The notes beneath the pieces are model-generated. The model did no database searches. It saw only the letters and a list, made by a program, of their open reading frames with translations, and was not told where the DNA came from. Below are positions 7,480 through 13,609 of a stretch of DNA of 32,778 bases, piece after piece. The position numbers and the translations under genes were made by a program. The DNA is from Salinirussus sp. (GTDB lineage: Archaea; Halobacteriota; Halobacteria; Halobacteriales; Haloarculaceae): the NCBI GenBank assembly GCA_028275005.1, contig JAQCNN010000101.1:1-32778 (forward strand). The letters are read 5' to 3'. Within the stretch, counting starts at the first letter, position 1. Each line of letters opens with the position of its first letter.

Positions 7480-9021
7480 TCAGACGAACTTTCGCACGGT
7501 GAGGTCGAGTGTCTCCAGGTCGACGATCGGGGCGTAGCCGACGTCGGGCTCGAGGTTGACGCTCTCCTGGAAGGCGGTCTGTGACTGCCAGCACGCGGAG
7601 TTGACCGTGAGCACGCCGTGGTACTTGCCGTAGCCGAGCTTGTGGACGTGGCCGGCGTGGAAGATATCGGGCACCTCCTCGATGACGAGGTGGTCCTCCT
7701 CCTCGGGGGCCAGCCGTGTCCGGCCGCCGTACTGCGGGGCGACGTGGCGCTTCCTGAGCAGCTGGTACATCGCCTCGTGGGGCCGGTCGTAGCTGGCGGC
7801 CTCGTCGGGTAGCTCGGCGATCACCTCGTCCAGCGAGACCCCGTGGTACATCAGCACGGTCACCCCTTCGACGGTGACGGTGGCAGGGTTTGCCGCTATC
7901 TCCGCGTCGTGGGCCGACATGATCGACCGTAGCTCCTCGTCGAAGGCCGGCTGGGGTTCGGCCAGCCGGACGGCGTCGTGGTTCCCGGGGATCATCACCA
8001 CCTCCATGTCGCCGGGGACCGACTTGAGGTGTTCGCTGAACCGTTCGTACTGGTCGTAGATGTCCACGATATCGAGTTCCTCGTCCTGGTCCGGGTAGAC
8101 ACCGATCCCCTCGACCATATCCCCGCCGACCAGCAGGTACTCCACGTCGGCGGCCTCCTCGGTGTGCAGCCAGTCGGCAAAGCCCGCCCAGGCGTCGGCC
8201 CGGAACTCCTGGCTGCCGACGTGGACGTCCGAGACGAGGGCCGCCCGGACCGGACGGTCGGCGGTCGATGGGGTGTGTGTCCGGGGGATATCGGGAACGT
8301 GGAGGTCGTCGACAAAGAGGATCCCGCCGTCGTCAGCGAGGGTGCCCTCGACGGCAACGACCTCGTCGTACAGCAGTTCCCGGACGTCGTCGGCGAACTC
8401 GCGGTCGCTCATCACCAGACAGGGAAACACCCCCGTCGTGTCCTCCAGTTCGACCAGCCAGTGGCCCCCGGCCGTCGAGCGGATGTCCGAGACCAGCCCA
8501 ACAAGGGCGGCGTCGCTGCCTGGGCTCATGTCCGCGATGGTGGCTGCGGGCCGGTGGTTGACGCGACTCCGGAGGTGGCCCGAGAGCTTCTCGTAGCGGT
8601 CCCGGAAAACCGCCTGGAAGTCGCGGTACTGGCCGGTACCCGTGCTCGCGACGTCCCCGCTGGTCTCGACCGCCGCCAACCCCCCTGTTTCGACTGGAGG
8701 ACCGCCGCCGCCGTTTGACGTATCCCCGCGGTCGGTTGCAGTTGAAACGGAGGGGTTCGAGGCCGGGTCGTCCGGCTCCGTCGAGTCCCCGGTGTGGCCG
8801 GCGGGGGTCGGCGGAGAACCCGGAGCCCCCGTGGCATCGAGTGCCGCGTGGACGTGCTCGCTCGATACCTTTAACGCGTCATCGGGCGCCTGTTCGACTG
8901 CGCGGTCGAGGGCGGCGTCGAGGTCGGTGGCGTTCGCCAGGAGGGTGACGGCTTCACGGTCTGCGTTGTACCCTCGGCTGGCGAGTTCGCTGACGACCCT
9001 GGCGGCCCCCTCGAGTGACAC
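7480..9021 (-). CDS. polD1: DNA polymerase D small subunit (DP1, exonuclease/calcineurin-like phosphoesterase)
   Basis: Phosphoesterase motifs SDVHVGSQEF, VGGDMVEGIGVYPDQ, MIPGNHDAVR, YHGVSLDEVI, HAGHVHKLGYGKY; OB-like domain upstream. Most plausible start is GTG at 9021 (VSLEGAARVVSELASRGYNADREAV); the ORF-track N-terminal extension overlaps the signal peptidase gene. Confidence 0.92.
   Translation of the reverse strand: MSLEGAARVVSELASRGYNADREAVTLLANATDLDAALDRAVEQAPDDALKVSSEHVHAALDATGAPGSPPTPAGHTGDSTEPDDPASNPSVSTATDRGDTSNGGGGPPVETGGLAAVETSGDVASTGTGQYRDFQAVFRDRYEKLSGHLRSRVNHRPAATIADMSPGSDAALVGLVSDIRSTAGGHWLVELEDTTGVFPCLVMSDREFADDVRELLYDEVVAVEGTLADDGGILFVDDLHVPDIPRTHTPSTADRPVRAALVSDVHVGSQEFRADAWAGFADWLHTEEAADVEYLLVGGDMVEGIGVYPDQDEELDIVDIYDQYERFSEHLKSVPGDMEVVMIPGNHDAVRLAEPQPAFDEELRSIMSAHDAEIAANPATVTVEGVTVLMYHGVSLDEVIAELPDEAASYDRPHEAMYQLLRKRHVAPQYGGRTRLAPEEEDHLVIEEVPDIFHAGHVHKLGYGKYHGVLTVNSACWQSQTAFQESVNLEPDVGYAPIVDLETLDLTVRKFV
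8681..8700 (-). repeat. Degenerate ORB-like element inside polD1
   Basis: Minus strand CCTCCAGTCGAAACAGGGGG resembles oriC repeat GTTCCACTCGAAACGAAGGGG. Confidence 0.3.
8735..8756 (+). repeat. ORB-like element inside polD1
   Basis: GTTGCAGTTGAAACGGAGGGGT matches 18/22 positions of oriC repeat GTTCCACTCGAAACGAAGGGGT. Confidence 0.42.
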
Positions 9022-9097: not shown

Positions 9098-9862
9098 GTG
9101 ATGAGAGGCCCCGGCGAGGGCGACAGGAGAGATGGACGTCGCGCCGACGGACCCGCGTCCGGACCTGCCAATCCCGGGGACCGAGCCACAGCGGAGGAGC
9201 ATACCGACGCCCCCGAGGGTCGGTCGCGTCGGCCGGTCGGGGACCGACGCGGCGCCGGGTCGTCTGACCCTGACCCCGAGCGTGGGAGCGGGAACAGCGG
9301 CTGGCGGCTGTTCGTCCGTGATATCGCTAGCAGCGTGTTTGCGGTGTTGCTCGTCGGGTTTTTGCTGTTTGCGGTCAGCGGGGTCTGGCCGCCCCTCGTC
9401 GCCGTCGAGAGCGGGAGTATGCTCCCGAACGTGGAGCGCAACGACCTCGTGTTCGTGATGGAGGAGGAACGGTTCCCGGGTGAGCGCGCGGAACAGGGGG
9501 TCGTGACCGCACAGAGGGGTGCGGAGACCGGCTATCAGAAGTTCGGTAACCCGGGTGATGTCATCGTCTTCGCGGCCAGTGGCGACAAGGCCGGGACGCC
9601 GATCATCCACCGCGCAATGCTGTGGGCGGAGGCCGGCGAGAACTGGTGTACCGCCGCCGACCCGGCGTATCTCGGCGGGCTGGACCCCGACGACCCTCGG
9701 TGTGTCGCCGACCACGCCGGCTTCATCACGAAGGGTGACAACAACCCTCGGTACGACCAGGCCACCGGGCTGAGCGGCCCGGTCAGGCCCGCCTGGGTCG
9801 TCGGGACCGCGGAGTTCAAGATCCCAGGTCTGGGGTGGATCCGGCTCCAGTCGGCGGGGTAG
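9098..9862 (+). CDS. Signal peptidase I, archaeal Sec11-like
   Basis: Transmembrane VFAVLLVGFLLFAVSGVWPPLVAVESGSMLPN (Ser motif), PIIHRAMLW (His), TKGDNN (Asp). Confidence 0.88.
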   Translation: MMRGPGEGDRRDGRRADGPASGPANPGDRATAEEHTDAPEGRSRRPVGDRRGAGSSDPDPERGSGNSGWRLFVRDIASSVFAVLLVGFLLFAVSGVWPPLVAVESGSMLPNVERNDLVFVMEEERFPGERAEQGVVTAQRGAETGYQKFGNPGDVIVFAASGDKAGTPIIHRAMLWAEAGENWCTAADPAYLGGLDPDDPRCVADHAGFITKGDNNPRYDQATGLSGPVRPAWVVGTAEFKIPGLGWIRLQSAG

Positions 9863-9892: not shown

Positions 9893-11437
9893 TCAGCTGT
9901 CGAAGCGGGCCTGGACGAACGGCTGGACGTCCTCGATGTCACCGAGTCGCGAGTCGGAGAGGAGCACCGCCTCGGTCTCGTCGAGCGGGACCGAGAGGCT
10001 GATCTCCTTCGTGCGGCCGTATCTGCCCTTCGAGACGACGACCGCGTTGACGATCCCGAGCATATCGAGCTCGGAGATGAGGTCGGTCACGCGGCGCTGT
10101 GTGAGGACGTCGGTGTCGATCTCCTCACAGAGTCGCTTGTAGATGTTGTACACCTCGCCGGTGTTGATGCTGTGGACCCCCTGTCTCTCGAGGAGGATGA
10201 TCGCAAAGAGCACGAGCTTGGACTGCTGTGGGAGGGTCCGGACGACCTCGACGACCCGGTCGAGTTCGATCTTCTCCTGGGCCTTGCGGACGTGGGCCTC
10301 CTCGACGCCGTCGGTCTGGTCGCGCTCGGCGAGTTCGCCGGCGGTCCGGAGCAGGTCGAGCGCCCGGCGGGCGTCACCGTGTTCCTGGGCGGCAAAGGCC
10401 GCACACAGCGGAATGACGTCGTCGGTGAGCGCGTCCGGCTCGAAGGCCTCCTCGGCGCGGTGTTCAAGGATGTCCCGCAGCTGGTTTGCGTCGTACGGCG
10501 GAAAGACGATCTCCTCCTCGCCGAGGCTGGATTTGACCCGTGGGTCGAGAAAGTCGGTGAACTTGAGGTCGTTGGAGATGCCCATGATCGACACCCGGGA
10601 GTTCTCCAGTTCGGAGTTCATCCGCGAGAGGTTGTAGAGGGTGTCGTCGCCCGACTTCTCGACGAGTTTGTCGATCTCGTCGAGCATGATCACGACCACG
10701 CGCTCGCGGTAGTCGACCGCGTCGAAGAAGGAACTGTAGACACGGTCGGTCGGCCAGCCGGTCATCGGGACCTCGTCGAACCGGTCACGGTCGTCCTCGA
10801 GCCGGTCGAGCCGGTCCCGGGCCGCGTCAACGGTGTCGTACGCCGAGTCCCCGAGCTCCCCGGTCTCGACGAGGGTTTCGAGGTCGGCGAGTTCGTCGTT
10901 GATCGCCGCCCGGTTTTTGTCGATGAACTTGTTGGCGAGCTGGGCGAGCACGCGGTACTGGGTGTCGGTCACCTCACAGTTGATATACTCCACCTCACAG
11001 GGGACCTCGTACCGCTCGGAGGTCGACTCGAGTTCGTCCGAGACGAAGTTCGCGCTCGCGGTCTTGCCGGTGCCGGTCTTTCCGTAGATGAGGATATTCG
11101 ACGGCGTATCCCCGCGCAGGGCGGTCACCAGGATCGTCGCCATGTTGTTGATCTGCTCCTCCCGGTGGGGGAGCTTTCGGGGGGTGTAGGAGGGTCGCAG
11201 TACCTCCTTGTTCTCGAAGATCGGCTGGCCGCTCAACAGGTCGTCGAACAGTCCCTGCGAGGCCCCGTCGGTGGGCTCCCCGTCGGCGCTGTCGTCGTCA
11301 ACCGTCACTTCGGGTGGAGTCTCGTCGGCGGAGGAAGGGAGGGATGGGTCGGCGATATCGCCGGAGATCCCGCTGAATCCCGGGTCGTTGCTGTCGGCGT
11401 TGCCTGCGTCGTCTCGCGGTTCGTCCGCGTCAGTCAT
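9893..11437 (-). CDS. orc1/cdc6: Orc1/Cdc6 replication initiator
   Basis: NILIYGKTGTGKTASANFV (Walker A), VVIMLDEIDKLV (Walker B), C-terminal winged helix; ATG at 11437 (MTDADEPRDDAGN). Adjacent to ORB repeats. Confidence 0.95.
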   Translation of the reverse strand: MTDADEPRDDAGNADSNDPGFSGISGDIADPSLPSSADETPPEVTVDDDSADGEPTDGASQGLFDDLLSGQPIFENKEVLRPSYTPRKLPHREEQINNMATILVTALRGDTPSNILIYGKTGTGKTASANFVSDELESTSERYEVPCEVEYINCEVTDTQYRVLAQLANKFIDKNRAAINDELADLETLVETGELGDSAYDTVDAARDRLDRLEDDRDRFDEVPMTGWPTDRVYSSFFDAVDYRERVVVIMLDEIDKLVEKSGDDTLYNLSRMNSELENSRVSIMGISNDLKFTDFLDPRVKSSLGEEEIVFPPYDANQLRDILEHRAEEAFEPDALTDDVIPLCAAFAAQEHGDARRALDLLRTAGELAERDQTDGVEEAHVRKAQEKIELDRVVEVVRTLPQQSKLVLFAIILLERQGVHSINTGEVYNIYKRLCEEIDTDVLTQRRVTDLISELDMLGIVNAVVVSKGRYGRTKEISLSVPLDETEAVLLSDSRLGDIEDVQPFVQARFDS

Positions 11438-11447
11438 GTCGTTTCGT

Positions 11448-11469
11448 ACCCCTTTGTTTCGGTTGGAGA
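11448..11469 (-). repeat. ORB-like element adjacent to cdc6 start codon
   Basis: Minus strand TCTCCAACCGAAACAAAGGGGT, 17/22 match to GTTCCACTCGAAACGAAGGGGT. Confidence 0.6.
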
Positions 11470-11646
11470 TTGCTCGCGCGCATCTCGGCAATGGGCTTGC
11501 ACCGGTGAGAGAGCCCCTGATGGCCACGGTTCCCGTGTCGTCGTGTGTCCACCTGAACCACAACTACTGGCGATTGAGAATATCTTAAAGATTTCGATTG
11601 TGAAAGGATACCACAGTACCTGTCCCAGGTGCGTGACGGTGTACTG

Positions 11647-11665
11647 TGCACCCGAAAGAAGGGGT
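11647..11665 (+). repeat. Degenerate ORB-like element
   Basis: TGCACCCGAAA-GAAGGGGT vs CCACTCGAAACGAAGGGGT, a match if a 1-nt deletion is allowed. Confidence 0.4.
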
Positions 11666-11880
11666 ATCCGCGGTGACGCAGGGGACACACGGCTGTGGGA
11701 GAGGAACAGAAGGCATGGGAGGAAGGGGAGAGGCGGGAGAACGAGAGAGAAGGGAGAATGGAGGGCAAAGTGAGGAAGGAGGGAACACACTGCAGGAGGG
11801 GAGGGGGTCGGATGAGGGGACGACCAGGAGATGAGGGGACGGGGAACAGCAGCAGCCGATGAGAAGGAGTGGTCCGGAAC

Positions 11881-11908
11881 CCCCCCACCCCTTCGTTTCG
11901 AGTGGAAC
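11881..11908 (-). repeat. ORB, left arm of perfect 28-bp inverted repeat
   Basis: CCCCCCACCCCTTCGTTTCGAGTGGAAC is the exact reverse complement of 12189-12216 and includes a G-string. Confidence 0.92.
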
Positions 11909-11954
11909 GCCGGAGAGAGGGAGGGGGGTGGTCACAGAGCGGGGACTACCCGTG

Positions 11955-12112
11955 GCGAAGATTTAAGTGTGATAGCTGTTAACCAAATCCGTACTAGAGA
12001 GAATCACCAACTGTTCTGTTCGGTCTAGTGGAGACAGCTAGTGTCGAACCACTCATCTAGTCTAGTTAACTAGTTCCGGAGCGACGTCCCTAAAACAGCT
12101 GTTCGACACGCT
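11955..12112. other. Candidate DNA unwinding element
   Basis: AT-richer stretch between the perfect ORB arms; six CTAG, palindromes CTAGTTAACTAG and AACAGCTGTT, and 9-bp inverted repeat GTGTCGAAC/GTTCGACAC. Confidence 0.65.
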
Positions 12113-12188
12113 CTCCTGGCCGTTTATCGGGCTTCTCTCACCTCTCTCCCCCGACGCTCCCGTGTTGTCCCGCCCACCCCTCACCACT

Positions 12189-12216
12189 GTTCCACTCGAA
12201 ACGAAGGGGTGGGGGG
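12189..12216 (+). repeat. ORB, right arm of perfect 28-bp inverted repeat
   Basis: GTTCCACTCGAAACGAAGGGGTGGGGGG; ORB-like core plus GGGG string. Confidence 0.92.
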
Positions 12217-12575
12217 TATCTCCCCCGGTAGGTCAGCCTCCTCCTCCAACTCCGAACCCTTCTTCGCCCCCGTCTCATCCACCCCTGTCCACCCGTGCGT
12301 CCCTGCTAACCCTACTCACACATTCCTCACTGCCGCCTCCACCGGCTCCGTCCTCCTCGCTCACCCGGGCTCCTCCCGCCTGTCAAACACGGTATCTCCT
12401 GCTCCAAGCTCTCTGCTTCGTTTCATATCCTTCCTGAATAGCGGAGCGAACAGCTTGCAGTCCCCCAATCTTGCCGAGGTCACACCTATCTCATCGGTCT
12501 TATGTGTGTCTGACGCACAATTAAGTGAGTCGGGTCGACTAATTCTCTCAAGCCCGCACAGGGCCGGGAGATAGG

Positions 12576-13223
12576 ATGGGAATACTCACAGAACTCAAAT
12601 CCAGCATTTCACGCGCGGCATCGACGCTGTTCTCGGCGGAGGACCCAAAGCGGATCGGGATCTACGGCCCACCGAACGCCGGGAAGACGACCCTCGCAAA
12701 CCGTATCGCGCGGGACTGGACAGAACACGGCGACGCCGTCGGGCCGGAAAGCGAGATTCCCCACGAGACACGCCGGGCCCGACGAAAGGAGAACGTCGAG
12801 ATCGAACGCAACGGCAAGACCGTCGACATCGACATCGTGGACACGCCGGGTGTCACCACGAAGGTCGACTACACCGAGTTCCTCGAACACGACATGGAGG
12901 AAGACGACGCCGTCCGCCGCTCTCGCGAGGCCACCGAGGGCGTTGCGGAGGCGATGCACTGGCTCCGGGAGGACGTCGATGGGGTGATCTACGTGCTCGA
13001 CTCCGCGACGGACCCCTTCACCCAGGTCAACACGATGCTCATCGGCATCATCGAGAGCCAGGACCTCCCGGTTTTGATCCTCGCGAACAAGATCGACCTC
13101 GAGGAATCGAGCGTCCAGCGGATCCGTAACGCCTTCCCACAGCACGAGACGGTCCAGGTCTCGGCGCTCGAGGGGGACAATATGGACGAAGTGTACGACA
13201 AGATCGCGGAGTATTTCGGATAA
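12576..13223 (+). CDS. oapA: Origin-associated GTP-binding protein OapA (Era-like GTPase)
   Basis: G1 GPPNAGKTT, G3 DTPG, G4 ANKID; directly next to the origin and followed by oapB/oapC. Confidence 0.88.
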   Translation: MGILTELKSSISRAASTLFSAEDPKRIGIYGPPNAGKTTLANRIARDWTEHGDAVGPESEIPHETRRARRKENVEIERNGKTVDIDIVDTPGVTTKVDYTEFLEHDMEEDDAVRRSREATEGVAEAMHWLREDVDGVIYVLDSATDPFTQVNTMLIGIIESQDLPVLILANKIDLEESSVQRIRNAFPQHETVQVSALEGDNMDEVYDKIAEYFG

Positions 13224-13225
13224 CC

Positions 13226-13609
13226 ATGGCCGAAGTAAAAGACCCCCACGACGGCGTGCAGATAGACCTCATCAGCGGTGAGCGACTGGCGAACCAGACC
13301 TCGATGGAGAAGATCCGGATGATCCTCGACGGCGTCCGGGAGGGCAACATCGTCATCCTCGAGGAGGGGCTCTCGCCCGACGAGGAATCCCGCCTCATCG
13401 AGGTGACGATGACCGAGATCAGCCCCGACGAGTTCAACGGCATCGAGATCGAGACCTACCCACGGTCGGAGGCCACCGACGCGAGCTTCCTCGACCGGCT
13501 GATGGGTCGGGAGTCGACAAAGAAACTCACCGTCATCGGCCCGGCCAACCAGATCGAGACCCTCCACAAGGACGAGACGCTGATCCAGACGCTCGTCTCC
13601 CGGAAGTAA
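13226..13609 (+). CDS. oapB: Origin-associated protein OapB (DUF2073)
   Basis: MAEVKDPHDGVQIDLISGERLANQTSMEKIRMILDGVREGNIVILEEGLSPDEESRLIEVTM; position in oap cluster. Confidence 0.87.
   Translation: MAEVKDPHDGVQIDLISGERLANQTSMEKIRMILDGVREGNIVILEEGLSPDEESRLIEVTMTEISPDEFNGIEIETYPRSEATDASFLDRLMGRESTKKLTVIGPANQIETLHKDETLIQTLVSRK

What the first reader, a model, noticed from the sequence alone, without database searches (positions are those of the whole stretch)
11881..12216. Perfect 28-bp inverted ORB pair bracketing a 280-bp core
11881-11908 and 12189-12216 are exact reverse complements (GTTCCACTCGAAACGAAGGGGTGGGGGG) pointing outward around an AT-richer core. The core motif resembles archaeal origin recognition boxes (GTTCCAnTGGAAAC...GGGG) with the halophile G-string, next to orc1/cdc6. 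This defines the origin at nucleotide resolution.
Basis: partly seen in the sequence, partly recalled or inferred. Interest (0 to 1): 0.75.

Follow-up and report, generated by a model that had tools for sequence, protein, structure and literature searches.

The report
Haloarchaeal origin with initiator-box network
The repeat pair is the main DNA replication start site (oriC1) of a salt-loving archaeon, itself an ordinary kind; but the same initiator-binding boxes also sit, conserved across many species, at the promoter of the initiator gene and, unexpectedly, inside the protein-coding sequence of a replicative DNA polymerase subunit.

Summary
Observation confirmed: 11881-11908 and 12189-12216 are exact 28-nt reverse complements, 280 bp apart (longest chance arm in simulations 14-17 nt). 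Interpretation supported in kind: this is oriC1. Of 80 orc1 loci from other haloarchaea, 78 have the same outward ORB pair upstream of orc1. "Nucleotide resolution" is overstated: no start site was mapped.

(1) The orc1 promoter carries its own boxes: TATA at -120, an inverted mini-ORB over the likely transcription start, and a full ORB just before the start codon (78/79 loci). (2) An outward ORB pair lies inside the coding sequence of PolD small subunit (8679-8756). It is held at DNA level: wobble bases match the box, not codon usage (e.g. third-base T 38/39 vs 2.5 expected). It stays in this gene even where the gene lies 11-130 kb from oriC1. In the window's genome the exact box occurs four times, all here. 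(3) CTAG sites cluster strictly between the origin ORBs (15.5/kb vs 1.1/kb beside them), a published association sharpened here.

I propose an Orc1-box network tying initiator, origin and polymerase together; binding and function are untested.

The parts
11881..11908 (-). oriC1 ORB, left arm, with extended halophile G-string (reads outward on - strand)
12189..12216 (+). oriC1 ORB, right arm, exact reverse complement of the left arm
11909..12188 (.). 280-bp core / presumed unwinding region, AT 44% vs 31% window
11917..11930 (+). G-rich inner repeat, left half (AGGGAGGGGGGTGG region)
   Evidence: position equivalent to the enhancer repeat of PMC3936714; inference
12168..12181 (-). G-rich inner repeat, right half (imperfect)
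   Evidence: inference
11994..12073 (.). cluster of 6 CTAG sites (11994, 12025, 12038, 12057, 12062, 12070); 4 of the genome's 5 overlapping CTAG triples
9893..11437 (-). orc1/cdc6 initiator gene (514 aa)
11448..11469 (-). ORB3, full ORB without the extended G-string, 10 nt upstream of the orc1 ATG
11548..11559 (+). inverted mini-ORB (TCCACCTGAACC) about 30 nt downstream of the TATA box, over the expected transcription start
11580..11596 (-). BRE/TATA-like box of orc1 (CGAAATCTTTAAGATAT), at the conserved -120 offset from ORB3
7480..9021 (-). PolD (DNA polymerase II) small subunit DP1 gene, GTG start
8679..8700 (-). intragenic ORB in DP1, outward arm 1 (13/13 core positions)
8735..8756 (+). 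intragenic ORB in DP1, outward arm 2 (12/13 core positions), 56 bp from arm 1
12576..13223 (+). Era-like GTPase (gbp position beside oriC1)
13226..13609 (+). OapB
   Evidence: PF09846
13613..14284 (+). OapC
   Evidence: PF09845

Best explanation
The inverted pair is the two ORBs of oriC1. Orc1, made next door, binds each ORB with its AAA+ domain on the outward G-string, the 280-bp AT-richer core is unwound, and MCM is loaded (inferred from homology). The same boxes occur at two more sites that I read as Orc1 control points: the orc1 promoter and leader (mini-ORB over the transcription start, ORB3 against the start codon), best explained as autorepression; and an outward pair inside the DP1 gene, best explained as an Orc1-bound titration or transcription-roadblock site that couples initiator level to the replicative polymerase. 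CTAG sites in the core are probable targets of the conserved orphan CTAG methyltransferase, which could time re-initiation. Shown here: the sequences, their conservation and the DNA-level selection in DP1. Inferred: Orc1 binding and all functions. Confidence below is for origin identity plus all boxes being Orc1-type sites; for the origin alone it is about 0.95, for autorepression about 0.6, for the DP1 site acting through Orc1 about 0.6.
For: Origin: exact repeat; same pair in 78/80 loci; 37/41 relatives match, mostly only at the ORBs; gene order and families; published dissection of oriC1 (11, PMC3936714). orc1 leader: toward-gene ORB (at least 12/13) in 78/79 loci vs 9 opposite; 4-15 nt from the start codon in most; TATA at -121 to -119 in 58/78 (76); mini-ORB at -87 to -90 in 56/78 (77); retained in L004, where the origin is absent upstream. 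DP1: codon test; synonymous null 17.2 +/- 1.7 vs observed 24.05, 53/55 loci above all their own draws; genome-wide search found the pair in 79/161 genomes, one each (two in one), reversed control 0; 30/30 inspected are in DP1; kept when DP1 is distant. Own genome: exact box only 4 times, all in this window.
Against: No binding or replication data for any site. The genome is a 78% complete MAG, so further boxes or origins may be missing. DP1 and leader boxes lack the extended G-string that is essential at H. hispanica oriC1, so they may bind more weakly or bind another Orc paralogue. The strict DP1 pair is absent from about half of the sampled haloarchaea, including most of family f4, so it is not universal; some of these have one arm or other spacing.
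Confidence: 0.8

Rival explanations
1. The 28-bp pair is a terminator, mobile-element end or chance repeat rather than an origin.
For: [quoted passage not shown]
Against: 280-bp spacer, conserved sequence and outward polarity in 78/80 loci upstream of orc1; not found elsewhere in its own genome.
Confidence: 0.03
2. oriC1 is here but dormant, with another origin doing the work in vivo.
For: Haloarchaea often have several origins, and some are inactive in the wild type (PMC4595724 abstract). The genome is incomplete.
Against: A Cdc6_C search found only this Orc1 above the family cut-off; local GC skew turns at the core.
Confidence: 0.1
3. The DP1 boxes are a by-product of a conserved peptide (PSVSTG...PVETKG), not a DNA element.
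For: The peptide is recognisable in many DP1 linkers.
Against: Among loci chosen by peptide alone, wobble bases follow the box: V codon third base T 38/39 vs 2.5 expected, NNT 37 vs 2.2, third base A 36 vs 2.6, CCA 36 vs 2.5, GAA 39 vs 9.4 (53). Amino acids vary where the box has N.
Confidence: 0.04
4. The DP1 pair regulates only DP1 transcription (roadblock or repression) rather than titrating Orc1.
For: It stays inside DP1 when DP1 lies 11-130 kb from oriC1 or on another contig (61), and lies 88-114 codons into the gene (71).
Against: E. coli datA also titrates initiator at a distance (general knowledge), so position does not decide; an ORB cluster thought to titrate Cdc6E is known next to oriC2 of H. 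hispanica (PMC3936714).
Confidence: 0.45
5. CTAG enrichment in the core is merely relaxation of genome-wide CTAG avoidance in AT-rich non-coding DNA.
For: CTAG is avoided in coding DNA (0.18/kb in orc1); the trinucleotide-based expectation in the cores is already 166 of the 272 seen.
Against: Flanking non-coding DNA has 1.1/kb vs 15.5/kb in the core; CTAG is the most enriched tetramer in the cores; flanking bases carry almost no information, so it is the tetramer itself. Counts are lower without the methyltransferase, 1.4 vs 3.9, but tree-controlled pairs are too few to be significant.
Confidence: 0.25

Closest known systems
Haloarcula hispanica oriC1-cdc6A (PMC3936714)
   Same: Inverted outward ORBs with extended G-string around an AT-rich core, inner G-rich repeat, next to cdc6.
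   Different: The inner G-rich repeat is imperfect here; the arms are identical over 28 nt. That paper does not describe the leader ORB or the DP1 boxes in the passages read.
E. coli datA and the H. hispanica oriC2D ORB cluster
   Same: Initiator boxes away from the origin that could titrate the initiator.
   Different: oriC2D is an intergenic 11-ORB cluster for Cdc6E; the DP1 element is a two-box pair inside a polymerase coding sequence, of the oriC1 box type.
Bacterial dnaA autoregulation (DnaA boxes in the dnaA promoter)
   Same: Initiator boxes in the initiator's own promoter.
   Different: Archaeal TATA promoter, one mini-ORB plus one ORB at a fixed distance of about 120 bp from TATA; repression not shown.
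Dam/SeqA GATC sequestration; haloarchaeal CTAG orphan methyltransferase (PMC4752239, PMC5867850)
   Same: Methylation-site cluster at the origin and a conserved orphan methyltransferase.
   Different: m4C CTAG and no SeqA analogue known; PMC5867850 found raised CTAG density only at oriC2 in H. volcanii, consistent with only 1-2 sites in Haloferax oriC1 cores here.

Membership tests
Haloarchaeal oriC1 | Two inverted ORBs (TTCCANNNGAAAC + GGGG) flanking a core | tested here: met
Haloarchaeal oriC1 | Halophile-specific extended G-string at ORB ends | tested here: met
   GGGGTGGGGGG on both arms; mean 5.5 G in the 7-nt extension over 158 arms
Haloarchaeal oriC1 | AT-rich unwinding element between ORBs | tested here: met
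   44% AT vs 31% window; best 60 bp 63%
Haloarchaeal oriC1 | Directly upstream of the oriC1-type orc1/cdc6 | tested here: met
Haloarchaeal oriC1 | Conserved synteny GTPase-oriC1-cdc6-signal peptidase-polymerase | tested here: met
   order in PMC4010727. The signal-peptidase-like ORF 9098-9862 had no Pfam hit and is assigned by position and sequence appearance
Haloarchaeal oriC1 | Inner G-rich inverted repeat (enhancer) | tested here: inconclusive
   G-rich on both inner sides but imperfect; only half of the repeat exists in some known oriC1 (PMC3936714)
Haloarchaeal oriC1 | ARS activity / replication initiation in vivo | not testable with these tools
   needs experiment
Initiator titration site (datA-like) | Initiator boxes outside the origin | tested here: met
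Initiator titration site (datA-like) | Binds initiator and lowers initiation | not testable with these tools
   needs ChIP and genetics
Methylation-controlled origin (Dam/SeqA-like) | Target sites clustered at the origin | tested here: met
Methylation-controlled origin (Dam/SeqA-like) | Cognate orphan methyltransferase in the genome | tested here: inconclusive
   N6_N4_Mtase-family candidate at C173 and orthologues in 114/115 family genomes; CTAG specificity inferred from homology only
Methylation-controlled origin (Dam/SeqA-like) | Hemimethylation-dependent sequestration | not testable with these tools
   needs SMRT data and genetics

The most novel reading that the evidence does not exclude
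Haloarchaea keep a dual-coding initiator-binding element: an Orc1 box pair written into the linker of the PolD small subunit, by which Orc1 titration or roadblocking links origin licensing to replicative polymerase supply, together with Orc1 autoregulation at the orc1 leader.
Probability: 0.5. Interest if true: 0.8.

Novelty: new variant of a known kind. Interest (0 to 1): 0.6.

Why it matters
How archaea restrain re-initiation and balance initiator with polymerase is largely open. A small, fixed set of Orc1 boxes, four exact copies in this genome, at origin, initiator promoter and polymerase gene makes this testable by ChIP and by silent recoding of one gene in genetically tractable haloarchaea. 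The DP1 element also shows a regulatory site conserved under protein-coding constraint. The CTAG data sharpen a published, disputed link between methylation and archaeal origins to the space between the ORBs.

Tried and rejected
Structured orc1 leader RNA: alifold energy near zero, MFE z about -0.7, no Rfam match reaching its gathering score; rejected. Purine/pyrimidine asymmetry outside the arms as a conserved feature: strong in the window (outward purine 19-28%) but mean 45-46% in relatives; only a local trait. Periodic CTAG spacing: none evident. CTAG count versus methyltransferase: significant without tree control (p 0.0006), not with independent pairs. DP1 element beyond Halobacteria: no 57-bp pair among the listed hits from other classes of the phylum, but the list was truncated.

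Full report
THE OBSERVATION. The two arms are exact reverse complements over 28 nt, at the stated coordinates, with 280 bp between them. They form the longest perfect inverted repeat of the window with arms less than 1 kb apart; simulated sequences reached 14 (intergenic region) and 17 (window). The G-strings face outward and the core is AT-richer (44% vs 31%).

WHAT IT IS. The gene to the left is an Orc1/Cdc6 initiator; to the right lie an Era-like GTPase, OapB and OapC. In 78 of 80 orc1 loci from other haloarchaea an ORB pair with the same orientation lies upstream of orc1, with cores of about 156-584 bp. The two exceptions are L018, where only 500 bp of upstream DNA is held, and L004, where orc1 with its promoter adjoins a transporter gene and the origin is not upstream (a MAG, so a chimeric contig cannot be excluded). 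In a DNA search of relatives the ORBs are what is usually conserved, in 37 of 41 genomes. This is the oriC1 family. In H. hispanica the ORBs and their G-strings are needed for autonomous replication and an inner G-rich repeat acts as enhancer (PMC3936714). The equivalent here is present but imperfect. The origin is thus a new member of a known kind.

A 13-position core of the ORB (T-CCA-N3-GAAAC-N3-GGGG; mask given) scanned over the window finds five sites at 12/13 or better: the origin pair, 11448-11469, and 8679-8700 with 8735-8756. The exact 19-mer TCCANNNGAAACNNNGGGG occurs four times in the whole 2.43-Mb assembly, all in this window; the reversed control pattern occurs in none of 25 genomes.

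THE orc1 LEADER. In 78 of 79 loci an ORB pointing toward orc1 lies before the gene, against 9 with an opposite one. In most it ends 4-15 nt before the start codon; here 10 nt. It lacks the extended G-string (mean 0.97 G in the 7-nt extension vs 5.53 for origin arms). Aligned on this box, a TATA-like box sits at -121 to -119 in 58 of 78 loci. An inverted mini-ORB (GTTTCNNNTGGA type, usually 7-8 of 9 positions) sits at -87 to -90 in 56 of 78, i.e. where transcription should start about 30 nt after TATA. No RNA structure explains the spacing. Inference: Orc1 represses its own promoter, as DnaA does in bacteria. L004 keeps this unit without the origin.

THE BOX PAIR INSIDE DP1. 8679-8756 lies in the linker of DP1, the PolD small subunit (NCBIfam equivalog over residues 1-512 of 513), 88-114 codons into the gene. 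The same outward pair, mostly at 56 bp and otherwise at 53, 68, 71 or 74 bp (whole-codon steps), appears in most of 55 DP1 genes found near orc1. I tested whether the peptide could explain this. Loci were picked by peptide pattern only (39 of 55). At seven telling codons the wobble base follows the box, not the codon usage of the gene: 38/39 vs 2.5 expected, 37 vs 2.2, 36 vs 2.6, 36 vs 2.4, 36 vs 2.5, 39 vs 9.4, 35 vs 10.5. Residues vary where the box has N. Sampling synonymous codons gave pair scores of 17.2 +/- 1.7 (one of 1100 draws reached 23); the observed mean was 24.05, and 53 of 55 loci exceeded all their own draws. So selection acts on the DNA.

SPECIFICITY AND RANGE. A genome-wide search that did not mention DP1 found the pair at exact spacing with at most 2 mismatches in 79 of 161 haloarchaeal genomes, one per genome among the rows shown except one with two, 0 in reversed controls; 30 of 33 in the window's family. 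All 30 loci inspected lie in the DP1 frame. It follows DP1 when DP1 is 11-130 kb from oriC1 or on another contig. Hence it serves DP1 or acts in trans, and is not just part of the origin. The strict pair is missing from about half of the genomes sampled, including much of family f4.

CTAG. The cores of 79 origins hold 272 CTAG in 17.5 kb (15.5/kb) against 1.1/kb in the non-coding DNA between origin and orc1 and 0.18/kb in orc1. CTAG is the most over-represented tetramer in the cores against base composition, and its flanks carry almost no information. In the window's genome four of five overlapping CTAG triples lie in this core; the fifth lies between what look like a tRNA gene and an integrase gene. 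Blow et al. 2016 (PMC4752239) already reported CTAG density at orc1/cdc6 starts tied to an orphan methyltransferase; Ouellette et al. 2018 (PMC5867850) doubted it for H. volcanii. New here is the confinement between the ORBs and the resolution by lineage. A methyltransferase orthologue is present in 114 of 115 family genomes. The window's sister in the Orc1 tree, L007 (support 88), has a decayed copy at the same place after hisG and no CTAG in its core. This is one case; tree-controlled pairs do not reach significance. That the enzyme methylates CTAG rests on homology.

WHAT IS SHOWN AND WHAT IS INFERRED. Shown: sequences, positions, conservation, codon-level selection. Inferred: Orc1 binds these boxes, autorepression, titration or roadblock at DP1, methylation control. 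In the passages of the papers read I found no mention of the leader ORB or the DP1 boxes, but two founding papers, Norais 2007 and Coker 2009, are not held, so priority is not certain.

VERDICT. The ORB pair alone would score low (about 0.15): ordinary oriC1. The Orc1-box pair written into the polymerase gene, with the orc1 leader boxes, raises the whole to 0.6.

Noticed in passing
window 8679-8756: Outward ORB pair inside the DP1 coding sequence under DNA-level selection; developed in the report.
   Followed up: yes
window 11448-11596: Conserved TATA / mini-ORB / ORB3 layout of the orc1 promoter; developed in the report.
   Followed up: yes
L124 4300-5500 (genome of L007): Decayed CTAG-type methyltransferase downstream of hisG, with frameshifts and stops, in a genome whose oriC1 core has no CTAG.
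   Followed up: partly
L121 1440-1740 (own genome, contig C206): CTAG triple between an apparent tRNA gene and an integrase-like gene, probably one end of an integrated element.
   Followed up: no
L004 1-1320: orc1 with its promoter boxes but no origin upstream; a transporter-like gene adjoins instead, and the TATA region is tandemly duplicated. Rearrangement or chimeric contig.
   Followed up: partly
window 11600-11880 and 12217-12400: Strong purine-rich / pyrimidine-rich strand asymmetry outside the arms, not shared by relatives.
   Followed up: partly
several loci (e.g. L032, L052, L053): Single ORBs just past the end of orc1, in species where DP1 is not nearby.
   Followed up: no
own genome C252:7426-7572 (L115): Weak Cdc6_C match below cut-off in a 404-aa frame; possible Orc paralogue or other AAA protein.
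   Followed up: no
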